Below are positions 13,414 through 24,344 of a DNA stretch of 25,277 nucleotides, one piece after another. Source of the DNA: a virus. Position 1 is the stretch's first letter, and each line of letters starts with the position of its first letter. The notes under the pieces were generated by a model, which was not told where the DNA came from, made no database searches, and was given only the letters and a program-made list of their open reading frames with translations. The stretch covers positions 1 through 25,277 of the IMG/VR virus record IMGVR_UViG_3300042914_001817. One strand, given 5' to 3'. The translations under genes were made by a program, and so were the position numbers.

Positions 13414-13560
13414 ATGGATCAAGAAATGCTAGACAAGATAGCCAAGATCATATCTCCCTATCTTAAGACAAAGCACAAAGAAAAAGAGTCTCACGACTTG
13501 GCAAAACGAATATTTGAGGAGTTGAAAGAAAATTATGACAACATTAGAAGTTTTCAATGA
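13414..13560 (+). CDS. helical hypothetical protein, 48 aa
   Basis: ATG 10 nt after TATAAT (13398-13403). Product MDQEMLDKIAKIISPYLKTK, then HKEKESHDLAKRIFEELKEN, YDNIRSFQ: two amphipathic, charged helices. It overlaps the oxygenase-like gene at 13535 by 26 nt in another frame and carries that gene's ribosome binding site region (GAGGAGTTGAAAGAAAATT). Role unknown; it could be a partner of the following protein. Confidence 0.7.
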   Translation: MDQEMLDKIAKIISPYLKTKHKEKESHDLAKRIFEELKENYDNIRSFQ

Positions 13561-14089
13561 ATCTCCATACAAACTTGTAAAAAACTATTTTAAGATAAAT
13601 ACAGATTGGGAGACAGCGCTTACTCTTTTGTATAAAAATTCTGACAAATCTCAGCATAGTCCTGGCGTTCTGTGGTTTAAGATTAAAAACCGTAAAATAT
13701 TTAAAGAAATACCAGACCTAAAAACTTTTTGTGAAAATATAAATAAAGATTCTAACTCAGAGTTTTTTGAAAATTGTTCGTTCAATGACGATTGGTATTC
13801 AGGATATTGTGATTGCTCTGGTTTATGGCATCTAGATGGACCTGTTTTATCTTTAGACTATCAAGGCATGCAATCTCACAAAGATGTATTCGATACAGCA
13901 TATATTCAAATTTTGGGAAATTCTTTTTGGACACTTGGAGGAGAAATAGAGGTAACACTAAACCCAGGAGATCTTCTATATGTATCTAAAAAAATAACTC
14001 ACGCAGTAAAAGGCGAAGGACCAAGATTTGGTGCGCTAATTGTTGCCCCCAGATATAAGGGCAGTACAAACCTCAAAAACTCCATGTGA
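13535..14089 (+). CDS. cupin/JmjC-like iron oxygenase-type protein, 184 aa
   Basis: Product MTTLEVFNESPYKLVKNYFK... with SGLWHLDGPVLSLDYQG: His99-Leu-Asp101 is a metal-binding H-x-D. A strand-rich core AYIQILGNSFWTLGGEIEVT then LNPGDLLYVSKKITHAV carries the distal His156, with Arg164 in the following loop. H-x-D...H on a double-stranded beta-helix matches Fe(II)/2-oxoglutarate JmjC or cupin dioxygenases; the PGDLLYV phrase is typical of that barrel. It lacks the P4H features of its neighbours. It belongs to the cluster of eight other oxygenase-like genes. Substrate unknown. Its end overlaps the convergent gene at 14036-14368. Confidence 0.7.
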   Translation: MTTLEVFNESPYKLVKNYFKINTDWETALTLLYKNSDKSQHSPGVLWFKIKNRKIFKEIPDLKTFCENINKDSNSEFFENCSFNDDWYSGYCDCSGLWHLDGPVLSLDYQGMQSHKDVFDTAYIQILGNSFWTLGGEIEVTLNPGDLLYVSKKITHAVKGEGPRFGALIVAPRYKGSTNLKNSM

Positions 14090-14368
14090 CACAAAATGAC
14101 CGCAAGGGCACGGCTCTGTTTTGCATGTGCAATCTTCTGGTTTAGGCAAATACTGTTTGTCGTTAGCAGTTTCAATAACATTGCAAGGCTTATTTGATTG
14201 ATGTGCAACATATTCACCGCATGGACAAAACCCTATTTTACCCCATTGGCCTGTATGACCACCACCACCAACCTGAACTACCTGACCATCATCACCAACA
14301 TTGGCACTTCCAGAACATGTTCTAATATCTGTGCTATATTGCTGATTGGGGTGCTTATTTCGTTTCAT
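14036..14368 (-). CDS. zinc-binding repeat protein, 110 aa, leaderless mRNA
   Basis: I start at the third Met (14366-14368), 6 nt after a TAGACT -10 box (plus 14375-14380), giving MKRNKHPNQQYSTDIRTCSG. The C-terminal half has two copies of a module: CPCGEYVAHQSNKPC (about 48-62) and CPCGHFVSHGVFEVC (about 86-100), each C-P-C-G...H...C, preceded by CTCKTE. The N-terminus is Gly/Val-rich (QVVQVGGGGHTG). The paired CPCG modules are probably zinc-binding. It overlaps the 3' end of the preceding plus-strand gene by 54 nt (convergent). Function unknown. Confidence 0.65.
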   Translation of the reverse strand: MKRNKHPNQQYSTDIRTCSGSANVGDDGQVVQVGGGGHTGQWGKIGFCPCGEYVAHQSNKPCNVIETANDKQYLPKPEDCTCKTEPCPCGHFVSHGVFEVCTALISGGNN

Positions 14369-14400
14369 AATCATAGTCTACCATACAGACCAAATGATGG

Positions 14401-14406
14401 TATAAT
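14401..14406 (+). promoter_or_regulatory. -10 box of the gene at 14416
   Basis: TATAAT, 9 nt before the ATG; the opposing -10 box of the minus-strand gene is at 14375-14380, so the two promoters are divergent. Confidence 0.55.
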
Positions 14407-14415
14407 TAAATCAAC

Positions 14416-14997
14416 ATGGAAAATTTCAACAAAATCTACTTAGAAGAAAATATCTTTTACATAGAAAATTTTATATCAGATACTGACATAGAAGAGGTTC
14501 TTGCTAATGTCGGATCTTGGACTCTCAGAAGACAAGATCATCATGAAAAGATATCATTTTCTATATTTGAGTCAGAAGAGGCGATTAATAAATTTAAAAA
14601 ACTCGTCGAGGATAAAGTTTCTATTGTAACAAACAATAAAGATCAAAAACTAAGAAAGATATCCATGTTGCAAAAATATAGCCCTACCGACTCATCTCCA
14701 TTGGCTTTAGGGTATCACTACGAAAACCACCCAGAATGTGATTACGAATCTAGATGGATCACCCTTGGTGTTGTACTATACCTAAATGATGGATACGCAG
14801 GTGGAGAGTTAATATTTGAACACAAACCTATTGAGTTTGCCCCTAAGAAGGGAACACTAATAGTGTTTCCAGCAAGTGAAGAATATAGTCATGCTGTAAA
14901 ACAGGTCACAGGCAAGGATCGTATTGTATATTCTGCATTCGTATATGCTAAACAATATTGGGACATATTAAATAGAGCAGGGTTTACTGACTTTTAA
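14416..14997 (+). CDS. 2-oxoglutarate/Fe(II) dioxygenase-like protein, 193 aa
   Basis: The product begins MENFNKIYLEENIFYIENFI, the 'helix-before-barrel' start of prolyl-4-hydroxylase-like oxygenases. The core has LGYHYENHPECDYESRWITL (His101-Tyr-Glu103; a second HxE at 105-107), then VVLYLNDGYAGGELIFEH, PKKGTLIVFPASEEYSHAV with the distal His159, and Arg169 in KDRIVYSAF. The order H-x-E/D, YLND-GGE, GTLIVFPA, S-H, R matches P4H/2OG-Fe oxygenases. The acid is Glu instead of the usual Asp, which is allowed in some active homologues but should be verified. It is one of eight such genes here. Substrate unknown. Confidence 0.85.
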   Translation: MENFNKIYLEENIFYIENFISDTDIEEVLANVGSWTLRRQDHHEKISFSIFESEEAINKFKKLVEDKVSIVTNNKDQKLRKISMLQKYSPTDSSPLALGYHYENHPECDYESRWITLGVVLYLNDGYAGGELIFEHKPIEFAPKKGTLIVFPASEEYSHAVKQVTGKDRIVYSAFVYAKQYWDILNRAGFTDF

Positions 14998-15538
14998 TAG
15001 CATTATCAAGAAACATCTGCAAAGTAACTCTTAGGTTATTACCTAAAACTGGGGTTGTATAGTGCAATTCAAACTTATCGTTGTAGACCAATAGCCCACG
15101 CTTAGGGGTTATTATGTTCCACTCTTGAGTCTGTTCATCCTTGTAGTGAAACATACCACCGTTATTAATACTCCACTCTTGGTTAAGATATACTGTTATT
15201 GGCTTTCTGCTATCTCCTACTTTGCCATCCTTATGAGGAGGTATATAGGATCCAGGGGTAAATAGGGTTACCTGTGCACCCACAGCATCACCTTTCTTTA
15301 TAATTCCAAGGTCAATCAACTCATCTGATATTAAATCACACAACAAATCAGGGACTATGTAGAGTATGGCTATGTGACTGTGCTCTCTTACATTTTCAGG
15401 CCAAGACATATTCGTAGTGGTTACAACTGGATTGGGGTATCCAAACTTAGATATTTCTGAGGCATTATAGTAACTCATAGCAAAATTGTATAGTTCCTCA
15501 CACAGGCTATCGCTAAGGCCTTTATCGTATATCTTCAC
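14984..15538 (-). CDS. 2-oxoglutarate/Fe(II) dioxygenase-like protein, 184 aa
   Basis: GTG start, with a TACAAT -10 box five nt upstream and no ribosome binding site. The barrel is complete: TPGSYIPPHKDGKVGD (His102-Lys-Asp104), VYLNQEWSINNGGMFHYKDE, ITPKRGLLVYNDKFELHYT (His159), then a strand with Arg170 (NNLRVTLQMFL). Proper HxD...H...R suggests catalytic competence. It overlaps the end of the convergent oxygenase gene 14416-14997 by 14 nt. It may be a relative of DNA/RNA- or lipid-directed 2OG oxygenases; the sequence shows only the fold. Confidence 0.85.
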   Translation of the reverse strand: MKIYDKGLSDSLCEELYNFAMSYYNASEISKFGYPNPVVTTTNMSWPENVREHSHIAILYIVPDLLCDLISDELIDLGIIKKGDAVGAQVTLFTPGSYIPPHKDGKVGDSRKPITVYLNQEWSINNGGMFHYKDEQTQEWNIITPKRGLLVYNDKFELHYTTPVLGNNLRVTLQMFLDNAIKSQ

Positions 15539-15541
15539 GCC

Positions 15542-15856
15542 TTATTGTACCATTTTGATCGCTTTATTAATCATGCGTATCAAACCTCGTCTGGTTATCT
15601 TTGAGGCATCAAAGGTCTCTGTATAGCCTCCCTGTGGCATATATTCCTTGTCTAGGAAAGAACCATGTTTTTCCCTTAGTGTTCTTAGTACTAGTGTTTC
15701 TACGGCTCTTGCCTTATCCCGTTCGGAAAACCACCAATACTTAATCAATACCCAACCCTTAGTCCTATGGCTTGCAAACCTTCTTCCGCTTACATCTGAT
15801 ATACCTATCTTGACAGCCTTATATACAGGGCTATAAAGTATATAAAGTAAAGTCAT
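15542..15856 (-). CDS. GIY-YIG-like protein, 104 aa, leaderless mRNA
   Basis: The start lies 6 nt after a minus-strand TATAAT (plus 15863-15868). Product MTLLYILYSPVYKAVKIGIS, then DVSGRRFASHRTKGW, VETLVLRTLREKHG and GGYTETFDASKI. The YIL...VKIGIS...H...GW...E...L pattern is that of GIY-YIG-type domains (T5orf172-like group), common as phage nucleases; the Y..Y, K-I-G-I and Glu positions fit. I cannot identify a DNA target domain, and the protein is compact. It is followed by the oxygenase-like gene 14984-15538 on the same strand, whose promoter overlaps its stop. Confidence 0.7.
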   Translation of the reverse strand: MTLLYILYSPVYKAVKIGISDVSGRRFASHRTKGWVLIKYWWFSERDKARAVETLVLRTLREKHGSFLDKEYMPQGGYTETFDASKITRRGLIRMINKAIKMVQ

Positions 15857-15883
15857 GTCTTTATTATACCCCGTCGAAAATGA

Positions 15884-16513
15884 CTATTTAAAAAGCACTT
15901 CTCTTGTTGAGTCTTTGGTAAACCACATGGGGATAGTATATCTGTCTTCGTTTGTAATATTTATTTGATGAACCATATCAACATTGTGCGATGGAAAAAT
16001 TACTAAATTCCCTAAACTTGGCTTGATTGACAAATTCATAGTTGGAAAATAAAGTTCTCCACCATCATTTACTGTATTTAAATATAAAATAGAACTATAA
16101 GCAAAATGTTGTTGATACCCACTTCCCACATCAGAATGAACCCTTAGCCAATCACCCTTTAAATGTTTAGCCAACCACAAAGAGGTCAGATACTGGGTCT
16201 CTTTTTCCTCATATAATTCTTTTATATTTGTTTTTGCTTTTTCAACTATACTTTTGATTAAATCCTCTATGTCTTCAAGCCTTGTTATAAATTTTTCTGG
16301 TTTATACGTTTTCATTTCGTCGTCTTGTCCAAACCTTCTTTTATAAAATCTATTTTCAAGATAAACAAAGTTTGGACTTGATCCATCGCTCATCCAAGGT
16401 TCGGCATTAATAATATTACGATTTATATAATTAATTATTTTATTTGATTCTTCCGTGTTTATAAAATTTTCAACGATTTTTACTTTTTCTTCTGGATCTT
16501 GAAATGCTGTCAT
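15884..16513 (-). CDS. 2-oxoglutarate/Fe(II) dioxygenase-like protein, 209 aa, leaderless mRNA
   Basis: ATG 6 nt after a TACAAT -10 box on the minus strand. Product MTAFQDPEEKVKIVENFINT...; core DWLRVHSDVGSGYQQHF (His126-Ser-Asp128), then a YLN strand with GGELYFP (150-157), LGNLVIFPSHNVDMVHQIN (His182) and Arg191 in NEDRYTIPMWF. The H-x-D, GGE-x-x-F, G-N-L-V-x-F-P, V-H and R positions are all canonical for P4H-type 2OG oxygenases, so it should bind Fe(II) and 2-oxoglutarate. Substrate unknown. It is separated from its neighbour genes only by promoters. Confidence 0.88.
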   Translation of the reverse strand: MTAFQDPEEKVKIVENFINTEESNKIINYINRNIINAEPWMSDGSSPNFVYLENRFYKRRFGQDDEMKTYKPEKFITRLEDIEDLIKSIVEKAKTNIKELYEEKETQYLTSLWLAKHLKGDWLRVHSDVGSGYQQHFAYSSILYLNTVNDGGELYFPTMNLSIKPSLGNLVIFPSHNVDMVHQINITNEDRYTIPMWFTKDSTREVLFK

Positions 16514-16545
16514 TTATCTATTGTATCATAGGGTATAATTAATAT

Positions 16546-16641
16546 ATGAATGAACAAAAAATAAAACAAAGCGTTAGGGCTTTAACAGTCCTATTTGGAA
16601 TATTTATTGCCGTAACCATAATTGCAGCCATATTTGCTTGA
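16546..16641 (+). CDS. single-span membrane peptide, 31 aa, leaderless mRNA
   Basis: ATG 6 nt after TATAAT (16534-16539). Product MNEQKIKQSVRALTVLFGIF, then IAVTIIAAIFA. A basic N-terminus (K5, K7, R11) and 19 hydrophobic residues: an inner-membrane span with its basic side in the cytoplasm. Its TGA stop lies inside the -35 box of the next promoter, which shows how tightly the region is packed. Function unknown. Confidence 0.65.
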   Translation: MNEQKIKQSVRALTVLFGIFIAVTIIAAIFA

Positions 16642-16666
16642 CATATAGCCATAAACCTGTCATACT
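16638..16666 (+). promoter_or_regulatory. sigma70-like promoter, leaderless start, stop codon inside -35
   Basis: TTGACA (16638-16643) includes the TGA stop of the peptide gene; 17 nt; CATACT (16661-16666); 6 nt; ATG at 16673. Confidence 0.8.
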
Positions 16667-16672
16667 AGTAGT

Positions 16673-17188
16673 ATGCAAACATTTCTACCATCTCAAGACT
16701 TTACCCAGTCTGCCCAAATACTAGACTCAAAGCGCCTTAACAAACAAATATTAGAGTGCTACCAGATTCTCAATGTTCTATCTGGCAAGTCGCCTACAGG
16801 TGGATGGCGTAATCATCCAGCAGTATTGATGTGGCGTGGCTTTGAGCGAGGTCTATGGGCGTATGTGCAGGCTATGATTGTGGAAGCCAAGTATCGTGGT
16901 ATCAAGACAGAAAACAATGAGACAAACCTGAACAGACTTAAAGACCAGTGTTGGGATGATTGGGGTAGCGATGCTCCAGCATTTTGGTTTGACAACAACA
17001 AATTGTCTAGGGTTACTACTACACACAAGGTAAGTTTGTTTAACAAAGATCCTTTGTATTATGCAAGGTTTCAGCCACATGTTAATAGTTTCTTTAACTC
17101 CCCTTGCTGTCCTGAGCGTAAGTTGCCGTGTAAGTATTATTGGCCAACACACGAAAAAGTAACCGATAGTGCCCTTGTAGGGAATTGA
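16673..17188 (+). CDS. pyrimidine-dimer DNA glycosylase, T4 endonuclease V-like, 171 aa
   Basis: Product MQTFLPSQDFTQSAQILDSK followed by RLNKQILECYQILNVL (residues 21-36) and GGWRNHPAVLMWRGFE (43-58). The block RLNKQ...IL...GWRNHPAVLMW is the signature of the MSMEG_6728/DenV-type pyrimidine-dimer glycosylase family (base excision of UV dimers), which acts on host or phage DNA. C-terminal Cys residues (PCCPERKLPC) are unusual compared with T4 endonuclease V. Leaderless, with a close promoter. The terminator-like end overlaps its last codons. Confidence 0.85.
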   Translation: MQTFLPSQDFTQSAQILDSKRLNKQILECYQILNVLSGKSPTGGWRNHPAVLMWRGFERGLWAYVQAMIVEAKYRGIKTENNETNLNRLKDQCWDDWGSDAPAFWFDNNKLSRVTTTHKVSLFNKDPLYYARFQPHVNSFFNSPCCPERKLPCKYYWPTHEKVTDSALVGN

Positions 17189-17200
17189 TAAGTTTTTTTT
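17172..17200 (+). terminator. terminator: hairpin plus T run, overlapping the gene end
   Basis: CCCT (17172-17175) pairs with AGGG (17179-17182), followed about 10 nt later by eight T residues (17193-17200). The hairpin lies in the last codons of the glycosylase. Related to the element at 13140-13215. Confidence 0.5.
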
Positions 17201-17238
17201 ATTTTCCGCCAAAATTTAAAACATGATATAATCTAGAT

Positions 17239-17364
17239 ATGGAAAAATCAAGGTGTCATTTTTGCGATAAAGAAGCACAATACTACGATGTTGTGCTAAA
17301 AAACGCCGAATACATTGTGGGCGATGTTTGCGTAGATCACCTTTCCGTAGAATTTGTATCCTAG
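17239..17364 (+). CDS. Cys/His-rich miniprotein, 41 aa, leaderless mRNA
   Basis: ATG 6 nt after TATAAT (17227-17232). Product MEKSRCHFCDKEAQYYDVVL, then KNAEYIVGDVCVDHLSVEFVS. C-H-F-C (6-9) and C31-x2-H34 make a possible zinc site (CxxC...CxxH), like short zinc ribbons in phages. Its 3' end precedes the next promoter directly. Function unknown. Confidence 0.65.
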   Translation: MEKSRCHFCDKEAQYYDVVLKNAEYIVGDVCVDHLSVEFVS

Positions 17365-17375
17365 AAACTGGATGG

Positions 17376-17381
17376 TATAAT
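17376..17381 (+). promoter_or_regulatory. -10 box of the leaderless oxygenase gene
   Basis: TATAAT, 6 nt before the ATG at 17388. This decides the start: an in-frame ATG at 17328 would be upstream of the transcript. Confidence 0.65.
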
Positions 17382-17387
17382 AAAAAA

Positions 17388-18158
17388 ATGACATATAGTG
17401 CTGAAGACTACAAAGAAAGAAATGTAACTAAACTGGTAGAGATTTGGGAGCCAAGAAAAGAATACATTGAAAAAGACCTGTGGGTAATAAGAAACTTTCT
17501 TTCAGATGAAGAATTGGTTTGGTTAAATAAAGAAGCAAATAATCCAGTTGGGTGGTACACCACAATGAGATCACCTTATGGGGGTAATACTAAAAACAAA
17601 TTTTTAGGTTATATACCAGATTACGATCCCGTCAGTGGGGCTATGCTTGTTCCTAAAGACAACTCTAGGTGGGGATACAAAGATCCCGTAGGATATTTTG
17701 AGCCTAGATTAGAGGCTGTAATGCCTAAGTATTTTGCTGGTGCTGGTGCACTTCAATCTTTTTTTGAAGTTCCTGAAGAGCAGATTATTGCAGAACTTGG
17801 CAGTACTGTTGACTATGCTATGGACTGGCACTGGGAAAGAGACGATAATGACGATGAAGAGCAGCAAAGAACAATTGTAGTAAATTCAAAAACTCAAGGG
17901 AAAAGAATATTAAGTGAAGCAAAGATTTCTGCATCTTTGAGCATTTATATAAATGATAACTTTGATGGTGGAGTTCTTGAGTTTAAGAATAAAGATTATG
18001 TAATCAATCCAGAGCCAGGCATGCTAGTTAATGTTCCTTTATATAAAGAGTTTGAGCATAGAGTTACAAAAGTTACTAATGGAAATCGACACACTATATA
18101 TGGAAGATGTTGGGATAGTTTAGAAGGAATCTACAAGTCAACAGATGAAGACTGCTAA
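17388..18158 (+). CDS. 2-oxoglutarate/Fe(II) dioxygenase-like protein, 256 aa, acidic-Cys tail
   Basis: The start at 17388 is fixed by the leaderless -10 box. The N-terminal half has an extra segment (residues 55-120, including TMRSPYGGNTKNKFLG) shared with the proteins at 22950 and 23637. The barrel carries VDYAMDWHWERDDNDDEE (His148-Trp-Glu150), IYINDNFDGGVLEFKN, PGMLVNVPLYKEFEHRV (His224), then Arg234 in NGNRHTIYG. The acid is Glu, not Asp. The C-terminus ends STDEDC; the other two end STKDDC. It is followed without a gap by a 76-aa gene, suggesting co-expression. Substrate unknown. Confidence 0.85.
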   Translation: MTYSAEDYKERNVTKLVEIWEPRKEYIEKDLWVIRNFLSDEELVWLNKEANNPVGWYTTMRSPYGGNTKNKFLGYIPDYDPVSGAMLVPKDNSRWGYKDPVGYFEPRLEAVMPKYFAGAGALQSFFEVPEEQIIAELGSTVDYAMDWHWERDDNDDEEQQRTIVVNSKTQGKRILSEAKISASLSIYINDNFDGGVLEFKNKDYVINPEPGMLVNVPLYKEFEHRVTKVTNGNRHTIYGRCWDSLEGIYKSTDEDC

Positions 18159-18389
18159 ATGAATAAAAGAATATTAAAAGATGGATCAGAAGTAGATTCA
18201 TATGATAAGCCAGTTGATTTAATTATTCATACAAAAGCACCTGGAAAATGGAAATTAATAGATTTAGAAACTGGTCAAGAATATCTTGGATCAGAAATAC
18301 CGCATGGTACATTTTCAGAAGTTTTAAGAAACAAAGTTTTAAATGGTATCATCGGCTCTTGGTTCAAAACCAAGGGTAGAGATATTTGA
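18159..18389 (+). CDS. hypothetical protein, 76 aa, coupled to oxygenase
   Basis: The ATG immediately follows the stop of the oxygenase-like gene. Product MNKRILKDGSEVDSYDKPVD, LIIHTKAPGKWKLIDLETGQ, then EYLGSEIPHGTF and a C-terminal basic helix. A beta-rich small domain with W-K-L-x-D-x-x-T-G-x-x-Y/W, typical of short phage proteins of unknown function. Its TGA stop lies in the -35 of the following promoter. Role unknown; a partner of the oxygenase is possible by adjacency only. Confidence 0.75.
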   Translation: MNKRILKDGSEVDSYDKPVDLIIHTKAPGKWKLIDLETGQEYLGSEIPHGTFSEVLRNKVLNGIIGSWFKTKGRDI

Positions 18390-18414
18390 CAAACCAATCA
18401 CAGTAAGGTATACT
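18386..18414 (+). promoter_or_regulatory. sigma70-like promoter, leaderless start, stop codon inside -35
   Basis: TTGACA (18386-18391) includes the TGA of the preceding gene; 17 nt; TATACT (18409-18414); 6 nt; ATG at 18421. Confidence 0.8.
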
Positions 18415-18420
18415 TAAAAT

Positions 18421-18672
18421 ATGGAACAATGGGTAAACGACTACGCATCATATGTGCTTGTTTTAAGCGGTGCTGCTGCTATGTTTGTAATTGGCAGAAA
18501 GAAAAGATTTGGCTGGCTTTGGTTTATATTTAATGAATTTATGTGGACTGCATATGCTCTAATTACAAAGCAGTATGGGTTTATACTTGGTGCTATCCTG
18601 TATGGTGTAGTGGGAGTTAAGTCTTTCATTCATTGGAAAGAAAAAGATAAAACAGAAAGGTTAATGCATTAA
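18421..18672 (+). CDS. small multi-span membrane protein, 83 aa
   Basis: Product MEQWVNDYASYVLVLSGAAA with a hydrophobic segment (10-24), a loop GRKKRFGW, a second segment (about 31-48, WLWFIFNEFMWTAYALI) and a third (about 54-68, FILGAILYGVVGVKSF), then a basic tail. Three spans with Trp-rich helices. The G-R-K-K-R-F-G-W-L...N-E-x-x-W-x-x-Y-A...G-x-I-x-Y pattern recalls short PnuC-like membrane proteins in phages, but this is too short to call. Leaderless. A possible transporter or membrane modulator. Confidence 0.75.
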   Translation: MEQWVNDYASYVLVLSGAAAMFVIGRKKRFGWLWFIFNEFMWTAYALITKQYGFILGAILYGVVGVKSFIHWKEKDKTERLMH

Positions 18673-18674
18673 TT

Positions 18675-18764
18675 ATGATTAGTTTATTTTTTTTAATTCC
18701 AGCATTTGTTGCTGGATATATAGTTTGTTACCTAGTTATGACCTGGGGAGTTGATCAAAACTAA
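18675..18764 (+). CDS. single-span membrane peptide, 29 aa
   Basis: MISLFFLIPAFVAGYIVCYL, then VMTWGVDQN. One hydrophobic span from residue 2 to 24. It starts 3 nt after the previous stop (GCATTAATT upstream, no clear ribosome binding site) and converges on the oxygenase-like gene at 18769. Coding is likely by context with the preceding membrane gene, but the absence of a ribosome binding site lowers confidence. Confidence 0.5.
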   Translation: MISLFFLIPAFVAGYIVCYLVMTWGVDQN

Positions 18765-18768
18765 GTTT

Positions 18769-19410
18769 TTAAGAAAGGCTATTTCTAAATTCACAAATAT
18801 TTTTAAAAACTTCATCATTTGGCCATAATTTTTGTAAATCAGAATAGTCAGTCGGATTTTCTTTTTTTGCAAATCTAAAAAAAATCATTTTTACAAAATC
18901 TCCATCATTAAATATTTTGTTGGGTCGCCAGTGTGCAGTTTTATTTGGATTAAAAACTAGGGCAGAGTTGTTTTTAATTTCATAAGTTTCAAAATTTACA
19001 CCAATATCCCATCTTGTGTTTGAGTCAAATTGATAGTTAACTATTAAGTCGTTATTGTCACCATCATAATGCGGAGGCAGACTTGGTGTTCCATACCTAG
19101 AACTATATTCTACATATGTGATAGAGGATAGCGTTAGATCAAGGCCAGAGATATAGTTTGCAAGTTTTGTCAATCTTATAGTGAGTGATTTGTCCGCAAG
19201 TTCTAAGTTTTTAACAGGAAATAAATCTGAAATATTATTGATATTAAATTGTATTCTTCCGAGATACTTTGAAACAGAAATATATGAATCTTGATCATCA
19301 AATATAAAATTTCCATATTCGTCTTTTGGTGCTTCAAGATCTTTTGTTATATTATTAAATATTGAAATTTCTTTTTCAGAAAGTAAATTATCAATAATTT
19401 TTGTATCCAT
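18769..19410 (-). CDS. 2-oxoglutarate/Fe(II) dioxygenase-like protein, 213 aa, leaderless mRNA
   Basis: Closely related to the N-terminal 213 residues of the protein at 20665, forming a subfamily. The ATG is 6 nt after a minus-strand TATAAT (plus 19417-19422). Core: SSRYGTPSLPPHYDGDNNDL (His114-Tyr-Asp116), YQFDSNTRWDIGVNFETYEI, then LVFNPNKTAHWRPNKIFNDG (His160). A terminal RFAKKEN supplies a possible 2OG-binding Arg179. The P-P-H-[YF]-D and N-P-N-x-x-x-H-W-R-P blocks are shared with 20665. Substrate unknown. Confidence 0.82.
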   Translation of the reverse strand: MDTKIIDNLLSEKEISIFNNITKDLEAPKDEYGNFIFDDQDSYISVSKYLGRIQFNINNISDLFPVKNLELADKSLTIRLTKLANYISGLDLTLSSITYVEYSSRYGTPSLPPHYDGDNNDLIVNYQFDSNTRWDIGVNFETYEIKNNSALVFNPNKTAHWRPNKIFNDGDFVKMIFFRFAKKENPTDYSDLQKLWPNDEVFKNICEFRNSLS

Positions 19411-19416
19411 TCTGTA

Positions 19417-19462
19417 ATTATATCATGCAGAATTTGACAAAACTGCTATTTTACGATAAAAT
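19417..19462. promoter_or_regulatory. divergent promoters, both leaderless
   Basis: The plus promoter is TTGACA (19434-19439), 17 nt, TAAAAT (19457-19462), 6 nt, ATG at 19469. The minus -10 is TATAAT (plus 19417-19422), 6 nt from the ATG at 19410. The plus TTGACA read on the minus strand is TGTCAA, 11 nt upstream of the minus -10, so the two promoters share DNA and would interfere. Confidence 0.7.
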
Positions 19463-19468
19463 TATATT

Positions 19469-19573
19469 ATGAGTAGACATATAACATGCCCAATTTGCAA
19501 AAAAGAGTGGGAACTAAGGTGGGGAATTATGGCAAATGAGTCCTTATCCAGACATATGAAGGAGCATAAGTGA
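19469..19573 (+). CDS. C2H2-type zinc-finger miniprotein, 34 aa, leaderless mRNA
   Basis: Product MSRHITCPICKKEWELRWGI, then MANESLSRHMKEHK. C7-x2-C10 ... H29-x3-H33 reads as a C2H2 zinc finger, with a longer than usual middle. It is preceded by a -10 box 6 nt away and overlaps the next gene by GTGA. C2H2 fingers are rare in bacteria and their phages, which makes this a plausible DNA- or protein-binding regulator; unverified. Confidence 0.65.
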   Translation: MSRHITCPICKKEWELRWGIMANESLSRHMKEHK

Positions 19574-20019
19574 AACCACTAGCACACATATACGATGTTG
19601 ACGGAACTCTTGCGAATGTAGATCCATTTTTACACCATGTTCGTGGTGGCAACAAAGATTACGATGCTTTTCACTATTCTTCCATTGATGCCCTGCCAAA
19701 TTTTGATGTAATTGAAATGTTAAATAATTCTTATAATGATAAATATTCAGTCATCATTGTTACATCAAGAAAAGAAAAGTATCGTGGAATCACATCTCTA
19801 TGGTTGCAAAAAAACAATGTAAGAAGCCATGCCCTGTTTATGAGAGCGGACAATGACAACAGACCAGACTATGAAGTTAAAAAAGACATACTAGATAAAA
19901 TAAATGAACTATGGAACGTAACACATGCAGTTGATGATAACCCACATGTAATAAAACTATGGGAAGAAAATAATATCCCTACCACAAAAATAGGCACATG
20001 GGACGGAGATCGTAGTTGA
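19570..20019 (+). CDS. HAD-family phosphatase, polynucleotide-phosphatase-like, 149 aa
   Basis: GTG start in a GTGA overlap. Product MKPLAHIYDVDGTLANVDPF: Asp9-Val-Asp11 is the HAD nucleophile motif. Next IVTSRKEKYRGITSLWLQ (motif II) and FMRADNDNRPDYEVKKDILD with the conserved Lys, then VTHAVDDNPHVIKLWEEN (acidic motif IV). The SRxxKYRxxTxxWLxxxxV-HxLFMR...D-R-PD..VK pattern matches the phosphatase domain of T4 Pnkp-like proteins, which remove 3'-phosphates at nucleic-acid ends, and related phage HADs. Metal-dependent, cytosolic. It could act in RNA or DNA end repair next to the glycosylase gene. Confidence 0.83.
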   Translation: MKPLAHIYDVDGTLANVDPFLHHVRGGNKDYDAFHYSSIDALPNFDVIEMLNNSYNDKYSVIIVTSRKEKYRGITSLWLQKNNVRSHALFMRADNDNRPDYEVKKDILDKINELWNVTHAVDDNPHVIKLWEENNIPTTKIGTWDGDRS

Positions 20020-20044
20020 CCTCAAGAGTTGGCTATGGTATGAT
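20016..20044 (+). promoter_or_regulatory. sigma70-like promoter, leaderless start, stop codon inside -35
   Basis: TTGACC (20016-20021) contains the TGA stop of the HAD gene; 17 nt; TATGAT (20039-20044); 6 nt; ATG at 20051. Confidence 0.75.
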
Positions 20045-20050
20045 TACTAT

Positions 20051-20221
20051 ATGAAAAAAACTAACAACAAAGTATCACAACATAAGGCAAAGCGTTACGC
20101 TAAAAATAAAAAGAGGCTTAAAGATAAACCACATCTTTCTAAGTTTGAGCGCCAACAAATTGCAAAAAGGGCAGAAATTTTAGGCGCATCGTTGCAAAGC
20201 ATGACTAACCATGCTAGATAA
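20051..20221 (+). CDS. basic small protein, 56 aa, leaderless mRNA
   Basis: MKKTNNKVSQHKAKRYAKNK, KRLKDKPHLSKFERQQIAKR, then AEILGASLQSMTNHAR. Strongly basic over residues 1-40 with a C-terminal helix. Nucleic acid binding is likely by composition alone. It overlaps the next gene by 11 nt in another frame. Confidence 0.7.
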   Translation: MKKTNNKVSQHKAKRYAKNKKRLKDKPHLSKFERQQIAKRAEILGASLQSMTNHAR

Positions 20222-20474
20222 TATAATCAAACTTATATTTTCTTGGGAAAAACTTAGGCTTGCAGTTTTTGCTGAAGTAGATTGGTATAATTCAATTACC
20301 AGAACACTAAACGATCCAGACTCTATGAAAACTGCTTCCGCTTTTTGGTGTGAAGAAGATGGATGGCGTGGCTGGGGCATTAAAGATGATGGCTCATATT
20401 ATTTTCACGATGTACCAGAAAAACACCTTAGTGATATATTTGATATAATAATAGATAAAGAAACAGTATACTAA
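20211..20474 (+). CDS. hypothetical protein, 87 aa
   Basis: ATG 11 nt inside the preceding gene. Product MLDNIIKLIFSWEKLRLAVF, AEVDWYNSITRTLNDPDSMK, TASAFWCEEDGWRGWGIKDD, then GSYYFHDVPEKHL. Aromatic-rich middle with one Cys. The W-R-G-W-x-I...D-x-Y-Y-F-H block is a short beta-turn unit. No family recognised. Next gene 12 nt downstream, with its own GGAGA ribosome binding site. Confidence 0.7.
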   Translation: MLDNIIKLIFSWEKLRLAVFAEVDWYNSITRTLNDPDSMKTASAFWCEEDGWRGWGIKDDGSYYFHDVPEKHLSDIFDIIIDKETVY

Positions 20475-20486
20475 AGGAGATGCAGT

Positions 20487-20672
20487 ATGGCATGTGGATG
20501 TGGATTTTCAACTGAGTACCCAGCCTGTAACGGAACTCATAAAGTTGTAAAGGCTGTAAAAGATAAAATTATTGCTGACATTGAGGCAATCGATATATCT
20601 GATGGAAAGTTAAACGGCTTGGGCATGAAAATGCTTGTGATTGAAGCGGTTAAAAAGGTAAAGGGTGTATGA
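20487..20672 (+). CDS. CDGSH-type iron-sulfur protein, 61 aa
   Basis: ATG after ACTAAAGGAGATGCAGT. The N-terminus reads MACGCGFSTEYPACNGTHKV. Residues 3 to 18 fit C-x-C-x2-S/T-x3-P-x-C-D/N-G-S/A/T-H (Cys3, Cys5, Cys14, His18), the [2Fe-2S] 3Cys-1His motif of CDGSH/mitoNEET proteins, with Asn in place of Asp. The rest is one amphipathic helix pair. Iron-sulfur CDGSH proteins act in redox or cluster transfer. It sits directly before an oxygenase-like gene (8-nt overlap), which suggests a reductant or redox-sensing partner. Confidence 0.78.
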   Translation: MACGCGFSTEYPACNGTHKVVKAVKDKIIADIEAIDISDGKLNGLGMKMLVIEAVKKVKGV

Positions 20673-21618
20673 CTTGACTATTTTTTACAACGAATGCGTA
20701 AAAAATAAAAATGTTTGGAAAATAGAAAATGTTTTTTCAGATACAGAATTAAAAAACATTTATGAAAAAGTTAATCAAAAAAGAAACGAGTTTGATGAAA
20801 ATTTTGTTTTTCATGGAGACTCTAGCCTAGAAGATGTAAGCGGAATAGGACCAGATCCAGACCTTGGCAGGTTTAGAATTGGAAGAATAGAAATAACACA
20901 AGAAGTTTTTAAAAAAATAAACGATTTATTAAAAGATAAAACAAATAAAAATTTAAAACTAAGCGGTATAAGTTGTGTTGAATACAGCAATGAATACGGG
21001 GATCCAAATTTACCACCACACTTCGATTCTTGCGAAACAGATTTAATTATAAACTTTCAATTACAATCTAATACCGAATGGGAGTTAGGATTAAATTTAG
21101 AAGTTTATAAACTCGAAGACAATTCAGCATTAATTTTTAATCCTAATGAAATAATTCACTGGAGGCCTTTTAAAAAATTTAAAGATCAAGAGTTTGTCAA
21201 GATGATTTTTTTTAGATTTACAGATTACAAAACAGACAATAGTCATTTAATGCTAAGTCAAGACGACGAAATTTTTAGCGAAGTTCTTAAATATAGAATG
21301 AGTTTGTGTCATAACTTACAAGACTGTGACTGCTTTTGTGATGATTGCAAAAAGGCACAAAAAAATATTATAGATAAAATTATTGAAGAGTATAGAACTT
21401 GTCCAAATATAGTTCAATCAGAAGACAGACTATTTTGTTATACATGGTGGAGACATGACGATTGTGAAAGAATTAGAGAGTTGTTGTATAGGATTACTAA
21501 AAATCGTTTATATACCCTGCCAGAAATAAGACCATCAGTTAGTACTGCCATAGAAGAAATGATTAATGATCCAGATACCGCAGAAATATTACGAAGACTT
21601 GAAGACAGCGGTATTTGA
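20665..21618 (+). CDS. 2-oxoglutarate/Fe(II) dioxygenase-like protein with C-terminal Cys-rich domain, 317 aa
   Basis: GTG start overlapping the preceding gene by 8 nt; a TTG at 20674 is an alternative. Residues 1-213 match the 18769-19410 protein: PNLPPHFDSCETDLIINFQL (His119-Phe-Asp121), LELNLEVYK-type strands, FNPNEIIHWRPFKKF (His165) and Arg184 (MIFFRFTDY). Residues 214-317 are an extra domain: SLCHNLQDCDCFCDDCKK (Cys215, 221, 223, 225, 228), then a helical section with Cys246, Cys258, Cys267 and a helical tail. The fusion could add a metal-binding or substrate-binding module. Its TGA stop lies inside the -35 of the tRNA promoter. Confidence 0.82.
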   Translation: MYDLTIFYNECVKNKNVWKIENVFSDTELKNIYEKVNQKRNEFDENFVFHGDSSLEDVSGIGPDPDLGRFRIGRIEITQEVFKKINDLLKDKTNKNLKLSGISCVEYSNEYGDPNLPPHFDSCETDLIINFQLQSNTEWELGLNLEVYKLEDNSALIFNPNEIIHWRPFKKFKDQEFVKMIFFRFTDYKTDNSHLMLSQDDEIFSEVLKYRMSLCHNLQDCDCFCDDCKKAQKNIIDKIIEEYRTCPNIVQSEDRLFCYTWWRHDDCERIRELLYRITKNRLYTLPEIRPSVSTAIEEMINDPDTAEILRRLEDSGI

Positions 21619-21643
21619 CAAGCAGTACAATACAAACTATAAT
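21615..21643 (+). promoter_or_regulatory. perfect consensus promoter of the tRNA cluster
   Basis: TTGACA (21615-21620, containing the preceding TGA stop), 17 nt, TATAAT (21638-21643), both perfect. Transcription should start about 7 nt downstream, right at the 5' end of the first tRNA (21652). Confidence 0.82.
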
Positions 21644-21651
21644 TAAATAAT

Positions 21652-21728
21652 GGAGCAGTAGCCAAGTTGGTCAAGGCCCCGAACTCATAATTCGGCTATC
21701 GTAGGTTCAAGTCCTACCTGCTCTACCA
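21652..21728 (+). tRNA. tRNA with anticodon CAT (Met or Ile2), CCA encoded
   Basis: Acceptor GGAGCAG/CTGCTCT (one G-T at the end pair), D stem GCC/GGC, anticodon stem CCGAA/TTCGG with loop CTCATAA (anticodon CAT at 21686-21688), T arm GTAGG-TTCAAGT-CCTAC, then A-CCA. A CAT anticodon could be elongator Met or, if lysidine-modified, Ile. It is not an initiator by its acceptor (no C-A mismatch at 1-72). Confidence 0.9.
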
Positions 21729-21729
21729 T

Positions 21730-21802
21730 GTCTCCATCGTCTAGTGGCCTAGGACTCTGCCCTTTCACGGCAGCAACACGGATTCGAATTCCGTTGGAGA
21801 TA
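21730..21802 (+). tRNA. tRNA-Glu (TTC)
   Basis: Acceptor GTCTCCA/TGGAGAT, anticodon stem CTGCC/GGCAG with loop CTTTCAC (TTC at 21764-21766), T arm ACGGA-TTCGAAT-TCCGT, discriminator A; CCA not encoded. One nt separates it from the tRNA before it. Confidence 0.9.
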
Positions 21803-21806
21803 CAAT

Positions 21807-21878
21807 ACCTCTGTAACTCAGCGGAAGAGTAGCGGACTTCTAATCCGTTTGTCGCAGGTTCGATTCCTGCCAGGGGTG
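21807..21878 (+). tRNA. tRNA-Arg (TCT)
   Basis: Acceptor ACCTCTG/CAGGGGT, anticodon stem GCGGA/TCCGT with loop CTTCTAA (TCT at 21839-21841), T arm GCAGG-TTCGATT-CCTGC, discriminator G, no CCA. It would read AGA/AGG codons, which the AT-rich genes here use often. Confidence 0.9.
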
Positions 21879-21879
21879 C

Positions 21880-21885
21880 TATAAT
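21880..21885 (+). promoter_or_regulatory. -10 box overlapping the tRNA-Arg end
   Basis: TATAAT begins 2 nt after the tRNA; the next gene follows with TTTTGGAGGAATA, so it has both an own -10 and a leader with ribosome binding site. Confidence 0.5.
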
Positions 21886-21900
21886 AGTTTTGGAGGAATA

Positions 21901-22659
21901 ATGATTATACAAATTATAGGTTTGCCTGGATCTGGCAAGACTGCATTAGCGACGGCACTTAAAGAAAGAATTAATGCCATACATCTTAATGCTGATGAGG
22001 TAAGGTCTACAGTTAATTCTGATCTTGGTTTTACCGCCGAAGATAGGATTGAGCAGGCTCGTCGCATGGGAGAGATGGCAAGGTTAATTGCAAATCAAGG
22101 TGTTGCTCCTGTCATTGTTGACTTTGTTTGTCCTACTAATGAAACTAGAGAAGCCTTTGGTCCAGCAGATGTTGTTGTTTGGGTAGATAGAGTTAAGCAG
22201 GGCAGGTTTGAAGATACAAACAAAATGTGGCAAGACCCAGAAAGATTTGATATCAGAATTCTAGACGGATACACATTAGATCAGGAAGTAGACACTGTAA
22301 TACAGGCTGGTGCCTTGTTTGATTGGTCTGCCCCAACAACTCTTCAGTTAGGAAGATATCAGCCTTGGCATGAAGGGCATCAGGCTCTCAAAGAAGAGGC
22401 TCACAAAAGAACTAAGCAGGTATTAGTAGGTGTTCGCAATACATACAAGACATCAGAAAAGGATCCATTGAAGTATGATGAGGTTGCAACATATATTCAG
22501 CAAGATAATCCATTTAAGGATACATTAGTATTACGACTGCCAAATATTACAAATATTGTTTATGGTCGTGATGTAGGCTATAAGATTGAACAAGTAGATT
22601 TGGGAGCAAACATTCATGCTATATCGGCTACGCAAAAGCGTAAAGAAATGGGCATCTAA
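21901..22659 (+). CDS. APS-kinase-like / nucleotidyltransferase fusion, 252 aa
   Basis: ATG after TTTTGGAGGAATA. Residues 1-140 are a P-loop kinase: MIIQIIGLPGSGKTALATAL (Walker A GLPGSGKT, 7-14), then LNADEVR (29-35) and VDFVCPTNETREAF (73-86), the pattern of adenylylsulfate (APS) kinases and related AAA_33-type kinases. Residues 145-252 are a nucleotidyltransferase: LQLGRYQPWHEGHQALKEEA (151-160 covers the HxGH motif) and the C-terminal ISATQKRKEMG (the ISTxxR-like motif of cytidylyl- and NMN adenylyltransferases). Such fusions occur in phages. Likely substrates are APS, or small phosphorylated or nucleotide compounds; unresolved. It is probably part of a sulfur or cofactor side pathway. 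Confidence 0.82.
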   Translation: MIIQIIGLPGSGKTALATALKERINAIHLNADEVRSTVNSDLGFTAEDRIEQARRMGEMARLIANQGVAPVIVDFVCPTNETREAFGPADVVVWVDRVKQGRFEDTNKMWQDPERFDIRILDGYTLDQEVDTVIQAGALFDWSAPTTLQLGRYQPWHEGHQALKEEAHKRTKQVLVGVRNTYKTSEKDPLKYDEVATYIQQDNPFKDTLVLRLPNITNIVYGRDVGYKIEQVDLGANIHAISATQKRKEMGI

Positions 22660-22692
22660 AATATTAGATAAAATAGGCAATGATAAAATTGA

Positions 22693-22905
22693 GTGGCCTT
22701 CGTGAAAGTAACTAGGGCAAGATCATTTGTTAAGGCACTAAGTTACCGCATATGGGGAACTCTTTCTTCATTTGTTGTTGCCTTTGTGATTACAAAAAAT
22801 GCTACAATATCAGGAGCAATCGCTTTTTGGGAAACAGTAATTAAAGTATTTATCTACTATGCCCATGAGCGTGGCTGGAACTATATACAGTGGGGGAGAA
22901 GGTAG
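22693..22905 (+). CDS. DUF2061-like membrane protein, 70 aa
   Basis: GTG start (22693); a second GTG at 22702 is equally possible, and a TAAAAT at 22669-22674 precedes an 11-codon frame beginning at 22680. Product MAFVKVTRARSFVKALSYRI, then WGTLSSFVVAFVITKNATISGAIAF-like spans and a C-terminal YYAHERGWNYIQWGR. The KALSYR-x-[IL]-G-T...A-F-V-x-T..., ending Y-[YF]-x-H-E-R-x-W-N-x-[IV]-x-W-G-R, matches DUF2061, a family of short membrane proteins I have seen next to adenylylsulfate kinases, here also just after an APS-kinase-like gene. Confidence 0.82.
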   Translation: MAFVKVTRARSFVKALSYRIWGTLSSFVVAFVITKNATISGAIAFWETVIKVFIYYAHERGWNYIQWGRR

Positions 22906-22907
22906 TT

Positions 22908-22926
22908 TTTCTGATCTAATCAGAAA
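22908..22926. repeat. perfect 8-bp inverted repeat between genes
   Basis: TTTCTGAT (22908-22915) and ATCAGAAA (22919-22926) across CTA. It lies 3 nt after the stop at 22905 and overlaps the -35 region of the next gene. It could be a weak terminator or an operator. Confidence 0.5.
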
Positions 22927-22937
22927 CAAAACTATGG

Positions 22938-22943
22938 TATCAT
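22938..22943 (+). promoter_or_regulatory. -10 box, leaderless start
   Basis: TATCAT, 6 nt before the ATG at 22950. The -35 region is occupied by the inverted repeat at 22908-22926. Confidence 0.6.
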
Positions 22944-22949
22944 ATCCAT

Positions 22950-23633
22950 ATGGAAAAAATATATCTAGATGAAGATAAACAGGTTTGGGTCATTGAAGAC
23001 TTTTTAACAAAAGAAGAACTAGAATGGTTCAAAACACAAACAGACGATGAACTTGGCTGGTATCCAACAATGAGGTCGCCTTATAAAAATATACTAAATA
23101 AATTTTTAAATGTTGTTCCTAAATATGATGAAAACGGAAATATAGAATTTCCAAATGAAGCATCTGAGGTTATAGACCTTCCAGTATTTACAAGACCAAA
23201 TGGCGTATGGCAAAGACTTGAGTCTGTTCTTCCTCCATCATACCGCAGACATGCCACACTTCAAAGTTTTAAATATATGACAGATGATCAAATAAAAGAA
23301 AATTTAAATATGGATATAATAAATTCATATAACATAGATGATAAAAATATAGACTTTGCTATGTATTGGCATGAAGATCCAGGCCATGAGCAAAATATTG
23401 TATGCTCCTTTAGTTTGTATCTTAATGATGATTACGAGGGCGGAGAATTAGAGTTTGCTGAAGTTCCGATTAAGTTAAAGCCAAAGGCTGGAACGCTTGC
23501 CGTAATTCCTGGAGGACATAAATATAGGCACAGAGTTAATAAAGTGTTAGGCCCAAATTCAAGACATACTCTTTACGGAAACTCTTATATAGACCCCTCA
23601 ATAGTTGTTGCAAGCACAAAGGATGACTGTTAA
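22950..23633 (+). CDS. 2-oxoglutarate/Fe(II) dioxygenase-like protein, 227 aa, acidic-Cys tail
   Basis: Paralogue of the next gene (shared MEK-[IV]-YLDE start, WY-[PT]TMRSPYKNILNK block, PNSRHTLYG and STKDDC end). The active-site region is YWHEDPGHEQNIV: His141-Glu-Asp143, a canonical HxD here, then SLYLNDDYEGGELEFAEVPI and PKAGTLAVIPGGHKYRHRVNK (distal His194), Arg205. Leaderless by its -10 spacing. A homologue of 17388-18158 as well. Substrate unknown; the conserved tail suggests a common partner. Confidence 0.87.
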   Translation: MEKIYLDEDKQVWVIEDFLTKEELEWFKTQTDDELGWYPTMRSPYKNILNKFLNVVPKYDENGNIEFPNEASEVIDLPVFTRPNGVWQRLESVLPPSYRRHATLQSFKYMTDDQIKENLNMDIINSYNIDDKNIDFAMYWHEDPGHEQNIVCSFSLYLNDDYEGGELEFAEVPIKLKPKAGTLAVIPGGHKYRHRVNKVLGPNSRHTLYGNSYIDPSIVVASTKDDC

Positions 23634-23636
23634 ATT

Positions 23637-24344
23637 ATGGAAAAAGTATATTTAGATGAAGGCCTATGGTATATAGAAAACTTTTTAAAAGAAAATGAAT
23701 TGTTTTTGTTAAAAAAATATTGTGATGATCCAAACCATTGGTACACGACTATGCGTTCTCCATATAAGAACATATTAAACAAATGGCCTATGAGTGAACC
23801 TAGATATGATGAAGATGGCACACTTGCAATTCCAAACCAAGATGATCCAGTTATAGAAGAAGTTTTTAATATTTTTAGCGGCCCAGAAGGGATATTTGAA
23901 AGACTGAGATCTGTGCTTCCAGAAGGATACGCACCAAACAGCGGGATTCAAACATTCAAATATTGTACAGACGAAGAAATAAAAAGAGATAGAGACGAAA
24001 GTATGTCTCTTGGCAATGCAGAAATGTTTGCAGTTAGATCTAATCCCGATAGCGCAGAAGATATTGACTATGCTATGGATTGGCACTGGGAAGATACAGG
24101 TGCTACTGGTAGTAGGATTGCATCACACTCAATATACTTGAATGATGACTTTGAAGGTGGCTACATAGAATTTAAAAAAGGCTATATAGTAAAGCCAAAG
24201 GCTGGCATGTTAATAAATATTCCGATTGGCAAAGAATTTACCCACAGAGTAACAAAAGTTCTTGGACCAAACTCAAGGCACACGCTATACGGTCAGTGCT
24301 GGTCTGATAATAATATAGTACTTAGTACAAAAGACGATTGCTAA
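23637..24344 (+). CDS. 2-oxoglutarate/Fe(II) dioxygenase-like protein, 235 aa, acidic-Cys tail
   Basis: It starts 3 nt after the stop of its tandem paralogue, with no ribosome binding site of its own; the upstream TAAATT gives little. Product MEKVYLDEGLWYIENFLKEN...; barrel YAMDWHWEDTGATGSRIAS with His150-Trp-Glu152 (Asp153 next), IYLNDDFEGGYIEFKKGYIV, then INIPIGKEFTHRVTKV (His203), Arg214 in PNSRHTLYGQCW. It ends STKDDC. Compared with the preceding protein the metal acid is Glu, as in 17388. Tandem duplication is clear. Activity depends on whether Glu152 or Asp153 ligates iron. Confidence 0.87.
   Translation: MEKVYLDEGLWYIENFLKENELFLLKKYCDDPNHWYTTMRSPYKNILNKWPMSEPRYDEDGTLAIPNQDDPVIEEVFNIFSGPEGIFERLRSVLPEGYAPNSGIQTFKYCTDEEIKRDRDESMSLGNAEMFAVRSNPDSAEDIDYAMDWHWEDTGATGSRIASHSIYLNDDFEGGYIEFKKGYIVKPKAGMLINIPIGKEFTHRVTKVLGPNSRHTLYGQCWSDNNIVLSTKDDC

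What the first reader, a model, noticed from the sequence alone, without database searches (positions are those of the whole stretch)
13535..24344. Nine iron-oxygenase-like genes packed into 11 kb of a phage-like region
Eight proteins (14416, 14984-, 15884-, 17388, 18769-, 20665, 22950, 23637) show the 2OG/Fe(II) dioxygenase order HxD/E, YLN/GGE or equivalent strands, distal His and usually an Arg, and a ninth (13535) a cupin/JmjC HxD...H. At least three subfamilies are visible: the tailed three (17388, 22950, 23637), the PPHxD...HWRP pair (18769-, 20665), and the rest. Phages are known to carry one or a few such enzymes; nine in a row with interleaved unrelated genes suggests a phage-borne modification battery, perhaps for DNA, tRNA, virion protein or host small molecules. 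The substrate is not visible.
Basis: partly seen in the sequence, partly recalled or inferred. Interest (0 to 1): 0.92.

Follow-up and report, generated by a model that had tools for sequence, protein, structure and literature searches.

The report
Phage island packed with iron oxygenases
A virus of freshwater-type actinobacteria really does carry nine iron-dependent oxygenase genes in 11 kb (and about nine more elsewhere in its genome), most of them related to protein hydroxylases; similar hoards are known in ocean cyanobacterial viruses, but here three of them share a never-varying cysteine tail and usually sit next to a peroxide-destroying enzyme, which gives a specific, testable clue to what they do.

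Summary
All nine ORFs encode double-stranded-beta-helix iron enzymes: six match Pfam PF13640 (prolyl-hydroxylase type); 18769-/20665 form a Pfam-less family whose predicted fold matches PHD2, an EF-Tu prolyl hydroxylase and a viral collagen prolyl hydroxylase; 13535 is a cupin/JmjC-like protein, the weakest case. All have HxD/E...H; eight have an Arg/Lys at the 2OG position.

The window lies, 99.99% identical, in a 115.7-kb actinophage contig (WhiB, terminase 55% identical to Stanwilliamsviridae). That contig holds about 18 such genes, 16 of them in two clusters. The second cluster (seven genes) is conserved in related phages. The window cluster is an accessory island: relatives keep its neighbours but swap the oxygenases (including TauD and JmjC types). 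Cultured relatives Gilson and Genie2 have no PF13640 hit.

New here: the three 'tailed' enzymes belong to a family seen only in viral contigs. All 56 distinct complete members end in STx[DE][DET]C. In 44 of 57 a peroxidase from one of three unrelated families (GPx, KatG, AhpC) lies just downstream.

Hoards in phages are already known (cyanophage S-SCSM1 has 24, seven within 9 kb), so this is a new variant of a known kind. The substrate is unknown; peptidyl hydroxylation is the best guess.

The parts
13535..14089 (+). cupin/JmjC-like iron protein; H115/D117/H156 invariant in homologues
   Evidence: Pfam JmjC_2 23.8 bits against cut-off 22; alignment A2; AF2/Foldseek weak, E 1.6e-3
14416..14997 (+). 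P4H-type 2OG-Fe(II) oxygenase (PF13640), H101-x-E103...H159, R169
   Evidence: E=2e-10; alignment; only about 30% relatives in related phages
14984..15538 (-). 2OG-Fe(II) oxygenase (PF13640), H102-x-D104...H159, R170; very narrow distribution
   Evidence: three loci only in IMG/VR
15542..15856 (-). GIY-YIG (T5orf172-type) endonuclease, island skeleton gene
15884..16513 (-). 2OG-Fe(II) oxygenase related to prolyl 3-/4-hydroxylases; invariant IPMWFTKD
   Evidence: PDB profile hit to P3H1 E=2.6e-7; alignment A4
16673..17188 (+). pyrimidine dimer DNA glycosylase-like protein, island skeleton gene
   Evidence: PF03013 4e-19
17388..18158 (+). tailed 2OG-Fe(II) oxygenase 1, C-terminus STDEDC
   Evidence: orthologues 73% (G015) and 60% (G013)
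18769..19410 (-). HWRP-family 2OG oxygenase, H114-x-D116...H160, K174
   Evidence: no Pfam family; homologous to 20665 and to syntenic G018/G015 genes
19570..20019 (+). PNKP-type HAD phosphatase, island skeleton gene
   Evidence: PF25109 5e-21
20487..20672 (+). short CDGSH-like protein, island skeleton gene
   Evidence: PF09360 weak; conserved position
20665..21618 (+). HWRP-family 2OG oxygenase fused to a ~95-aa C-terminal domain that is a separate gene in relatives
   Evidence: AF2 DSBH core, Foldseek E~1e-6 to PHD2 and P4H; C-terminal domain stand-alone in L072
22950..23633 (+). tailed 2OG-Fe(II) oxygenase 2, C-terminus STKDDC
23637..24344 (+). tailed 2OG-Fe(II) oxygenase 3, C-terminus STKDDC; 3 bp after 22950
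24386..25189 (+). glutathione-peroxidase-like protein, 41 bp downstream of 23637; partner of the tailed oxygenases
   Evidence: PF00255 1.5e-9; adjacency

Best explanation
The region is an accessory gene island of a large freshwater-type actinophage distantly related to Stanwilliamsviridae. It has accumulated iron-dependent, mostly 2-oxoglutarate-dependent, double-stranded-beta-helix hydroxylases from at least three families. Each is expected to hold Fe(II) with HxD/E...H, bind 2OG with a distal Arg or Lys, and use O2 to hydroxylate an amino-acid side chain in a protein (prolyl-hydroxylase-type chemistry), either a host factor such as the translation machinery or a virion protein. The three tailed members are a phage-specific family working in a small operon with a peroxide-removing enzyme (GPx, or KatG or AhpC in other phages), which keeps the iron centre and the invariant C-terminal cysteine reduced. 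Shown by computation: the enzyme class of the nine, the island exchange, the invariant tail and the gene adjacency to peroxidases. Inferred: catalytic activity, protein substrates, a functional coupling to the peroxidase and the role of the cysteine.
For: Family and fold: (nearest solved relatives P3H1, bacterial P4H and EF-Tu P4H, i.e. protein hydroxylases). Genome context and host: WhiB, class II RNR; terminase 55% over its full length to Streptomyces phages Gilson and Genie2. Lineage-specific gain: 0 PF13640 hits in Gilson and Genie2. Exchange at a fixed site. Tailed family: 56/56 distinct complete proteins end in STx[DE][DET]C; no confirmed relative among 84,980 bacterial and archaeal genomes, 132 viral stretches. 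Peroxidase adjacency: 44 of 57 distinct tailed proteins have GPx, KatG or AhpC within 2.6 kb downstream on the same strand; the next gene is GPx1 in 29 and KatG in 5.
Against: No activity or substrate is demonstrated, and the PF13640 fold also serves small-molecule oxygenases. Sequence matches to protein hydroxylases are weak and local (E 1e-7 to 4e-3). Peroxidases could serve general oxidative-stress defence, as proposed for freshwater phages (PMC6802176), rather than the oxygenases. 13 of 57 tailed proteins had no peroxidase found within 2.6 kb downstream (some loci are short). 13535 is only weakly supported. Profile comparison does not link the HWRP or cupin families to the P4H-type family by sequence; that link rests on motif and predicted fold.
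Confidence: 0.5

Rival explanations
1. The oxygenases tailor small molecules or surface glycans (host-wall or virion-linked), as in natural-product pathways; the phage keeps a shifting set of tailoring enzymes.
For: Related islands also carry a flavin-type tryptophan halogenase (5e-106) and a carbamoyltransferase, typical tailoring enzymes also reported in marine cyanophages (prnA and carbamoyltransferase listed in PMC3037559). TauD-type enzymes, which act on small molecules, occupy the same slot in G015.
Against: The nearest solved relatives of the window's own PF13640 members are protein hydroxylases; no biosynthetic pathway is visible in the window.
Confidence: 0.25
2. The oxygenases modify or repair nucleic acid (phage DNA or tRNA).
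For: The island also holds a pyrimidine-dimer glycosylase, a PNKP phosphatase, a GIY-YIG nuclease and tRNA genes. The model of 13535 finds AlkB-like folds weakly.
Against: None of the nine hits the AlkB or TET/JBP Pfam families. The PHROGs label 'DNA endonuclease V' on PF13640 hits is not a nuclease match and looks like a neighbour-derived name. The set changes almost completely between relatives.
Confidence: 0.12
3. The genes serve oxidative stress or 2OG and oxygen balance in general: they drain 2OG or O2, or act as sensors, without one specific substrate, as proposed for cyanophages.
For: Adjacent GPx, AhpC, AhpD, thioredoxin or KatG; the 2OG-level proposal for cyanophages (PMC3037559) and ROS defence in freshwater phages (PMC6802176).
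Against: About 18 divergent enzymes with subfamily-specific invariant residues (IPMWFTKD; STx[DE][DET]C) point to specific substrates; bulk 2OG drain would need only one enzyme.
Confidence: 0.13

Closest known systems
2OG-Fe(II) oxygenase hoard of T4-like cyanophage S-SCSM1 (24 genes, MK867354)
   Same: Many divergent PF13640-type genes in one phage genome, with a dense stretch of seven in 9 kb (210680-219702), next to tail-fibre genes
   Different: Different phage family and host (Kyanoviridae of Synechococcus); somewhat lower density genome-wide (24 in 229 kb against about 18 in 116 kb); no annotated peroxidase in the stretch inspected (190-228 kb)
Prolyl hydroxylases: P. putida EF-Tu P4H (PPHD), Bacillus P4H, collagen P3H1, PBCV-1 collagen P4H, PHD2
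   Same: DSBH fold, HxD/E...H...R/K arrangement; best solved-structure matches of 15884-, the tailed and the HWRP families
   Different: Identity about 10-14% over the fold or local only; the STxDDC tail is a feature of the phage family; substrate not shown
PHROG 61 / T4-GC_104 cyanophage 2OG-Fe(II) oxygenases
   Same: Closest named-phage relatives of the tailed family (up to 49% over 57 residues)
   Different: Lack the C-terminal cysteine tail and a GPx or KatG neighbour in the two loci inspected
Stanwilliamsviridae (Streptomyces phages Gilson, Genie2)
   Same: Terminase 55% identical over full length, similar genome size, WhiB annotated in Gilson
   Different: No PF13640 match at E<=0.01

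Membership tests
2OG-Fe(II) oxygenase superfamily, P4H-type (PF13640) | profile match over the DSBH core | tested here: met
   six of nine (14416, 14984-, 15884-, 17388, 22950, 23637); all 12 members of the tailed alignment
2OG-Fe(II) oxygenase superfamily, P4H-type (PF13640) | HxD/E...H facial triad and distal R/K, conserved in homologues | tested here: met
   14984- has too few homologues to test conservation
2OG-Fe(II) oxygenase superfamily (18769-/20665, HWRP family) | DSBH fold | tested here: met
   AF2 model of 20665 (mean pLDDT 57, core 65-88), Foldseek PDB E about 1e-6 to PHD2 and P4H; no Pfam match; 18769- by homology only
JmjC/cupin (13535) | DSBH with HxD...H | tested here: inconclusive
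   JmjC_2 23.8 bits against cut-off 22 over 24 residues; triad invariant in three homologues; weak model and Foldseek E 1.6e-3
Prolyl (peptidyl) hydroxylase | hydroxylates a protein side chain | not testable with these tools
   needs biochemistry; only sequence and fold resemblance
TET/JBP or AlkB nucleic-acid oxygenases | match to those families | tested here: not met
   no such Pfam match in any of the nine
Stanwilliamsviridae | family-level relatedness of the terminase and gene content | tested here: inconclusive
   terminase 55%; gene-content comparison not done

The most novel reading that the evidence does not exclude
The tailed enzymes are a new redox-coupled hydroxylase system: a phage-only P4H-type oxygenase whose invariant C-terminal cysteine (STxDDC-COOH) is catalytic, regulatory or itself modified, and which works together with a co-transcribed peroxidase that can be replaced by unrelated peroxidases (GPx, KatG, AhpC).
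Probability: 0.25. Interest if true: 0.75.

Novelty: new variant of a known kind. Interest (0 to 1): 0.52.

Why it matters
Large sets of 2OG oxygenases recur in aquatic phages of unrelated families, and no substrate was reported in the papers read here. This case offers handles that the cyanophage cases lack: a conserved core cluster against a fast-turnover island in one lineage, cultured relatives with none detected, and a phage-only subfamily with an absolutely conserved C-terminal cysteine and a peroxidase neighbour. If the peroxidase coupling is functional, it points to what limits these enzymes in an infected cell and makes the old question of what phages hydroxylate directly testable.

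Tried and rejected
Near-identity search of named phages with the island: no match. Named-phage protein searches with 20665 and 13535: none. Search for the tailed family in 84,980 bacterial and archaeal genomes: no confirmed relative, so no bacterial operon context could be used; the scan relies on two short peptide patterns, so a divergent bacterial relative could be missed. Direct PDB search with 14416: none. Profile comparison of the HWRP and cupin families with the P4H-type family: not significant. PHROGs names 'DNA endonuclease V' and 'ferrochelatase' on these proteins were rejected as label carry-over. The PADLOC '2OG, CAS-associated' hit is a generic PF13640-type profile and no evidence for defence. 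Collagen-like tail proteins were considered as the substrate of the window cluster; they exist in this genome (G001 19817-20536 and 21278-22132) but lie in the tail region nearer the second cluster, so this stays a suggestion for that cluster. Literature searches for phage prolyl hydroxylase with collagen-like or EF-Tu substrates gave nothing relevant. The permutation test gives only moderate p values (0.001-0.02) because the whole genome is rich in these genes. Iterative profile E-values include the members themselves and were used only for listing; the 95-aa stand-alone domains picked up there (G018_19109, G013_45895) are false members brought in by the fusion in 20665.
Full report
What was checked. 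Pfam places six in PF13640, the prolyl-4-hydroxylase-type 2OG-Fe(II) oxygenases; a six-frame search of the contig lists five of these six. The pair 18769-/20665 has no Pfam family. They are about 40% identical to each other, and related phages have further members that keep the PHxD...HW(R) spacing. An AlphaFold2 model of 20665 shows an eight-strand core, and Foldseek against solved structures returns HIF prolyl hydroxylase PHD2, the Pseudomonas putida prolyl hydroxylase that acts on EF-Tu, and the chlorella-virus collagen prolyl hydroxylase at E about 1e-6. 13535 is a cupin/JmjC-like protein with an invariant H-K-D and distal H; its model is poor and the assignment is the weakest of the nine. 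Metal ligands and the 2OG-side Arg or Lys were located in eight of them, and the metal ligands alone in 13535.

Where it lies. The window is a whole IMG/VR contig. It is 99.99% identical over its full length to positions 27147-52423 of a 115,665-base contig, G001. That contig has a 126-base repeat near both ends, which suggests a nearly complete genome, although IMG/VR lists it as linear. It encodes WhiB and a B12-dependent ribonucleotide reductase, and its terminase is 55% identical over full length to those of Streptomyces phages Gilson and Genie2 of the Stanwilliamsviridae. The host is therefore most likely an actinobacterium. 'Freshwater-type' is inferred from the resemblance to published whiB-bearing freshwater actinophages, not from sample records. 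The two cultured relatives have no PF13640 match.

How many. This genome has about 18 DSBH oxygenase-like genes, 16 of them in two clusters: the window cluster (9) and a second cluster of 7 at positions 114240 through 5735 on the minus strand, between the ribonucleotide reductase and the tail genes, interleaved with DUF6065 proteins. The clustering exceeds shuffled gene orders (p 0.005 for a 20-gene window, 0.01 for adjacent pairs).

Two different histories. In the second cluster most genes have counterparts at 55-89% identity in related contigs (G004, G013, G015); 741-1604 has only 44% and 32% relatives. The window cluster behaves as an exchange site. The relatives keep varying subsets of its neighbours (DUF932, the GIY-YIG nuclease, the pyrimidine-dimer glycosylase, the PNKP phosphatase, the CDGSH protein, the thioredoxin and the AhpC/AhpD genes), but the oxygenases differ. 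G018 carries a largely different set of eight or nine, including two JmjC-type proteins. G015 carries five, including a TauD-type enzyme and a 47%-identical relative of 13535. G013 has four and G009 two. Only the tailed enzymes, the HWRP family and the 13535 cupin recur. One trace of insertion is visible: the last 95 residues of 20665 are a separate gene placed directly after the CDGSH gene in G018 and G013, and in the window lineage an HWRP oxygenase sits between them, fused in frame. The nine genes also lie on both strands, so they are not one operon.

The tailed family. 17388, 22950 and 23637 belong to a family found in at least 132 viral stretches and confirmed in none of 84,980 bacterial and archaeal genomes by the pattern scan used. 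All 56 distinct complete members collected end in S-T-x-[DE]-[DET]-C; among 1529 ORFs of 14 related contigs only family members end in [DNE][DEN]C, and the cyanophage relatives lack it. In 44 of 57 distinct members a peroxidase gene follows within 2.6 kb on the same strand; the next gene is a GPx-like gene in 29 and a catalase-peroxidase (KatG) in 5. Replacement of one peroxidase type by an unrelated one at the same place is the best sign that peroxide removal, not one particular protein, is what the oxygenase needs. This pattern was found after inspection of the loci and has no phylogeny-corrected test.

What it most likely does. The closest solved relatives by sequence profile are collagen prolyl 3-hydroxylase, bacterial prolyl 4-hydroxylases and the EF-Tu hydroxylase, so peptidyl hydroxylation is the leading guess, at about even odds against the other readings taken together. 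Tailoring of small molecules or glycans is the strongest rival, because related islands hold a tryptophan halogenase and a carbamoyltransferase, genes also listed for marine cyanophages (PMC3037559). Nucleic-acid modification is weaker: no AlkB or TET/JBP match.

What is known already. T4-like cyanophages often carry 1 to 5 such genes; S-SCSM1 carries 24 with no function assigned (PMC9602691), seven of them within 9 kb among tail-fibre genes. P-SSM2 has nine PF13640 matches and S-BM1 seven. A hoard of 2OG oxygenases in a phage is therefore not new. The actinophage setting, the contrast between a conserved cluster and an exchanging island, and the tailed, peroxidase-adjacent family were not found in the papers read; the literature search was limited to open-access PMC text and a few queries.

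Limits. ORFs were called mechanically. Contigs are metagenomic and several are fragments. Some loci in the neighbourhood count are close relatives; distinct proteins were counted once, but no phylogenetic correction was made.

Noticed in passing
window 18421-18672 and 21901-22659: A half-size PnuC-like transporter gene and a kinase plus nucleotidyltransferase fusion (APS-kinase-like N-terminus, NMN-adenylyltransferase-like C-terminus) in the same island: possibly NAD salvage during infection.
   Followed up: partly
G001 positions 2847-3560, 113487-114224 (L034, L039), perhaps 4252-5019: DUF6065 proteins interleaved with the oxygenases of the second cluster; a conserved partner of unknown function.
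   Followed up: partly
L124:11530-13077:-, L124:8142-9560:-, L124:2558-4639:+: Related islands carry a tryptophan halogenase, a carbamoyltransferase and a catalase-peroxidase. The first two types are also listed for unrelated marine cyanophages (PMC3037559).
   Followed up: partly
L134:16859-17620:+: In G018 a CDGSH-type iron-sulphur motif is fused to a JmjC-like oxygenase; in the window the CDGSH gene lies directly before oxygenase 20665.
   Followed up: no
G001 62776-63306 (L037:4276-4806:-): A further 2OG-oxygenase-like gene whose best match is in Prochlorococcus phage P-SSM2 (37% over 166 aa), suggesting exchange between unrelated phage families.
   Followed up: partly
window 18159-18389: A small protein (RILKDGSEVDSYDKPVDL...) directly follows the tailed oxygenase 17388; a relative of it is found in 38 of 77 loci that hold a tailed oxygenase.
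   Followed up: no
G001 19817-20536 and 21278-22132: Collagen-like Gly-X-Y tail proteins in the same genome and in relatives whose contigs cover the tail region; a possible hydroxylase substrate.
   Followed up: partly
window 1-13000: Many small ORFs of unknown function with DUF932 and a gp88-like gene; no oxygenases there.
   Followed up: no
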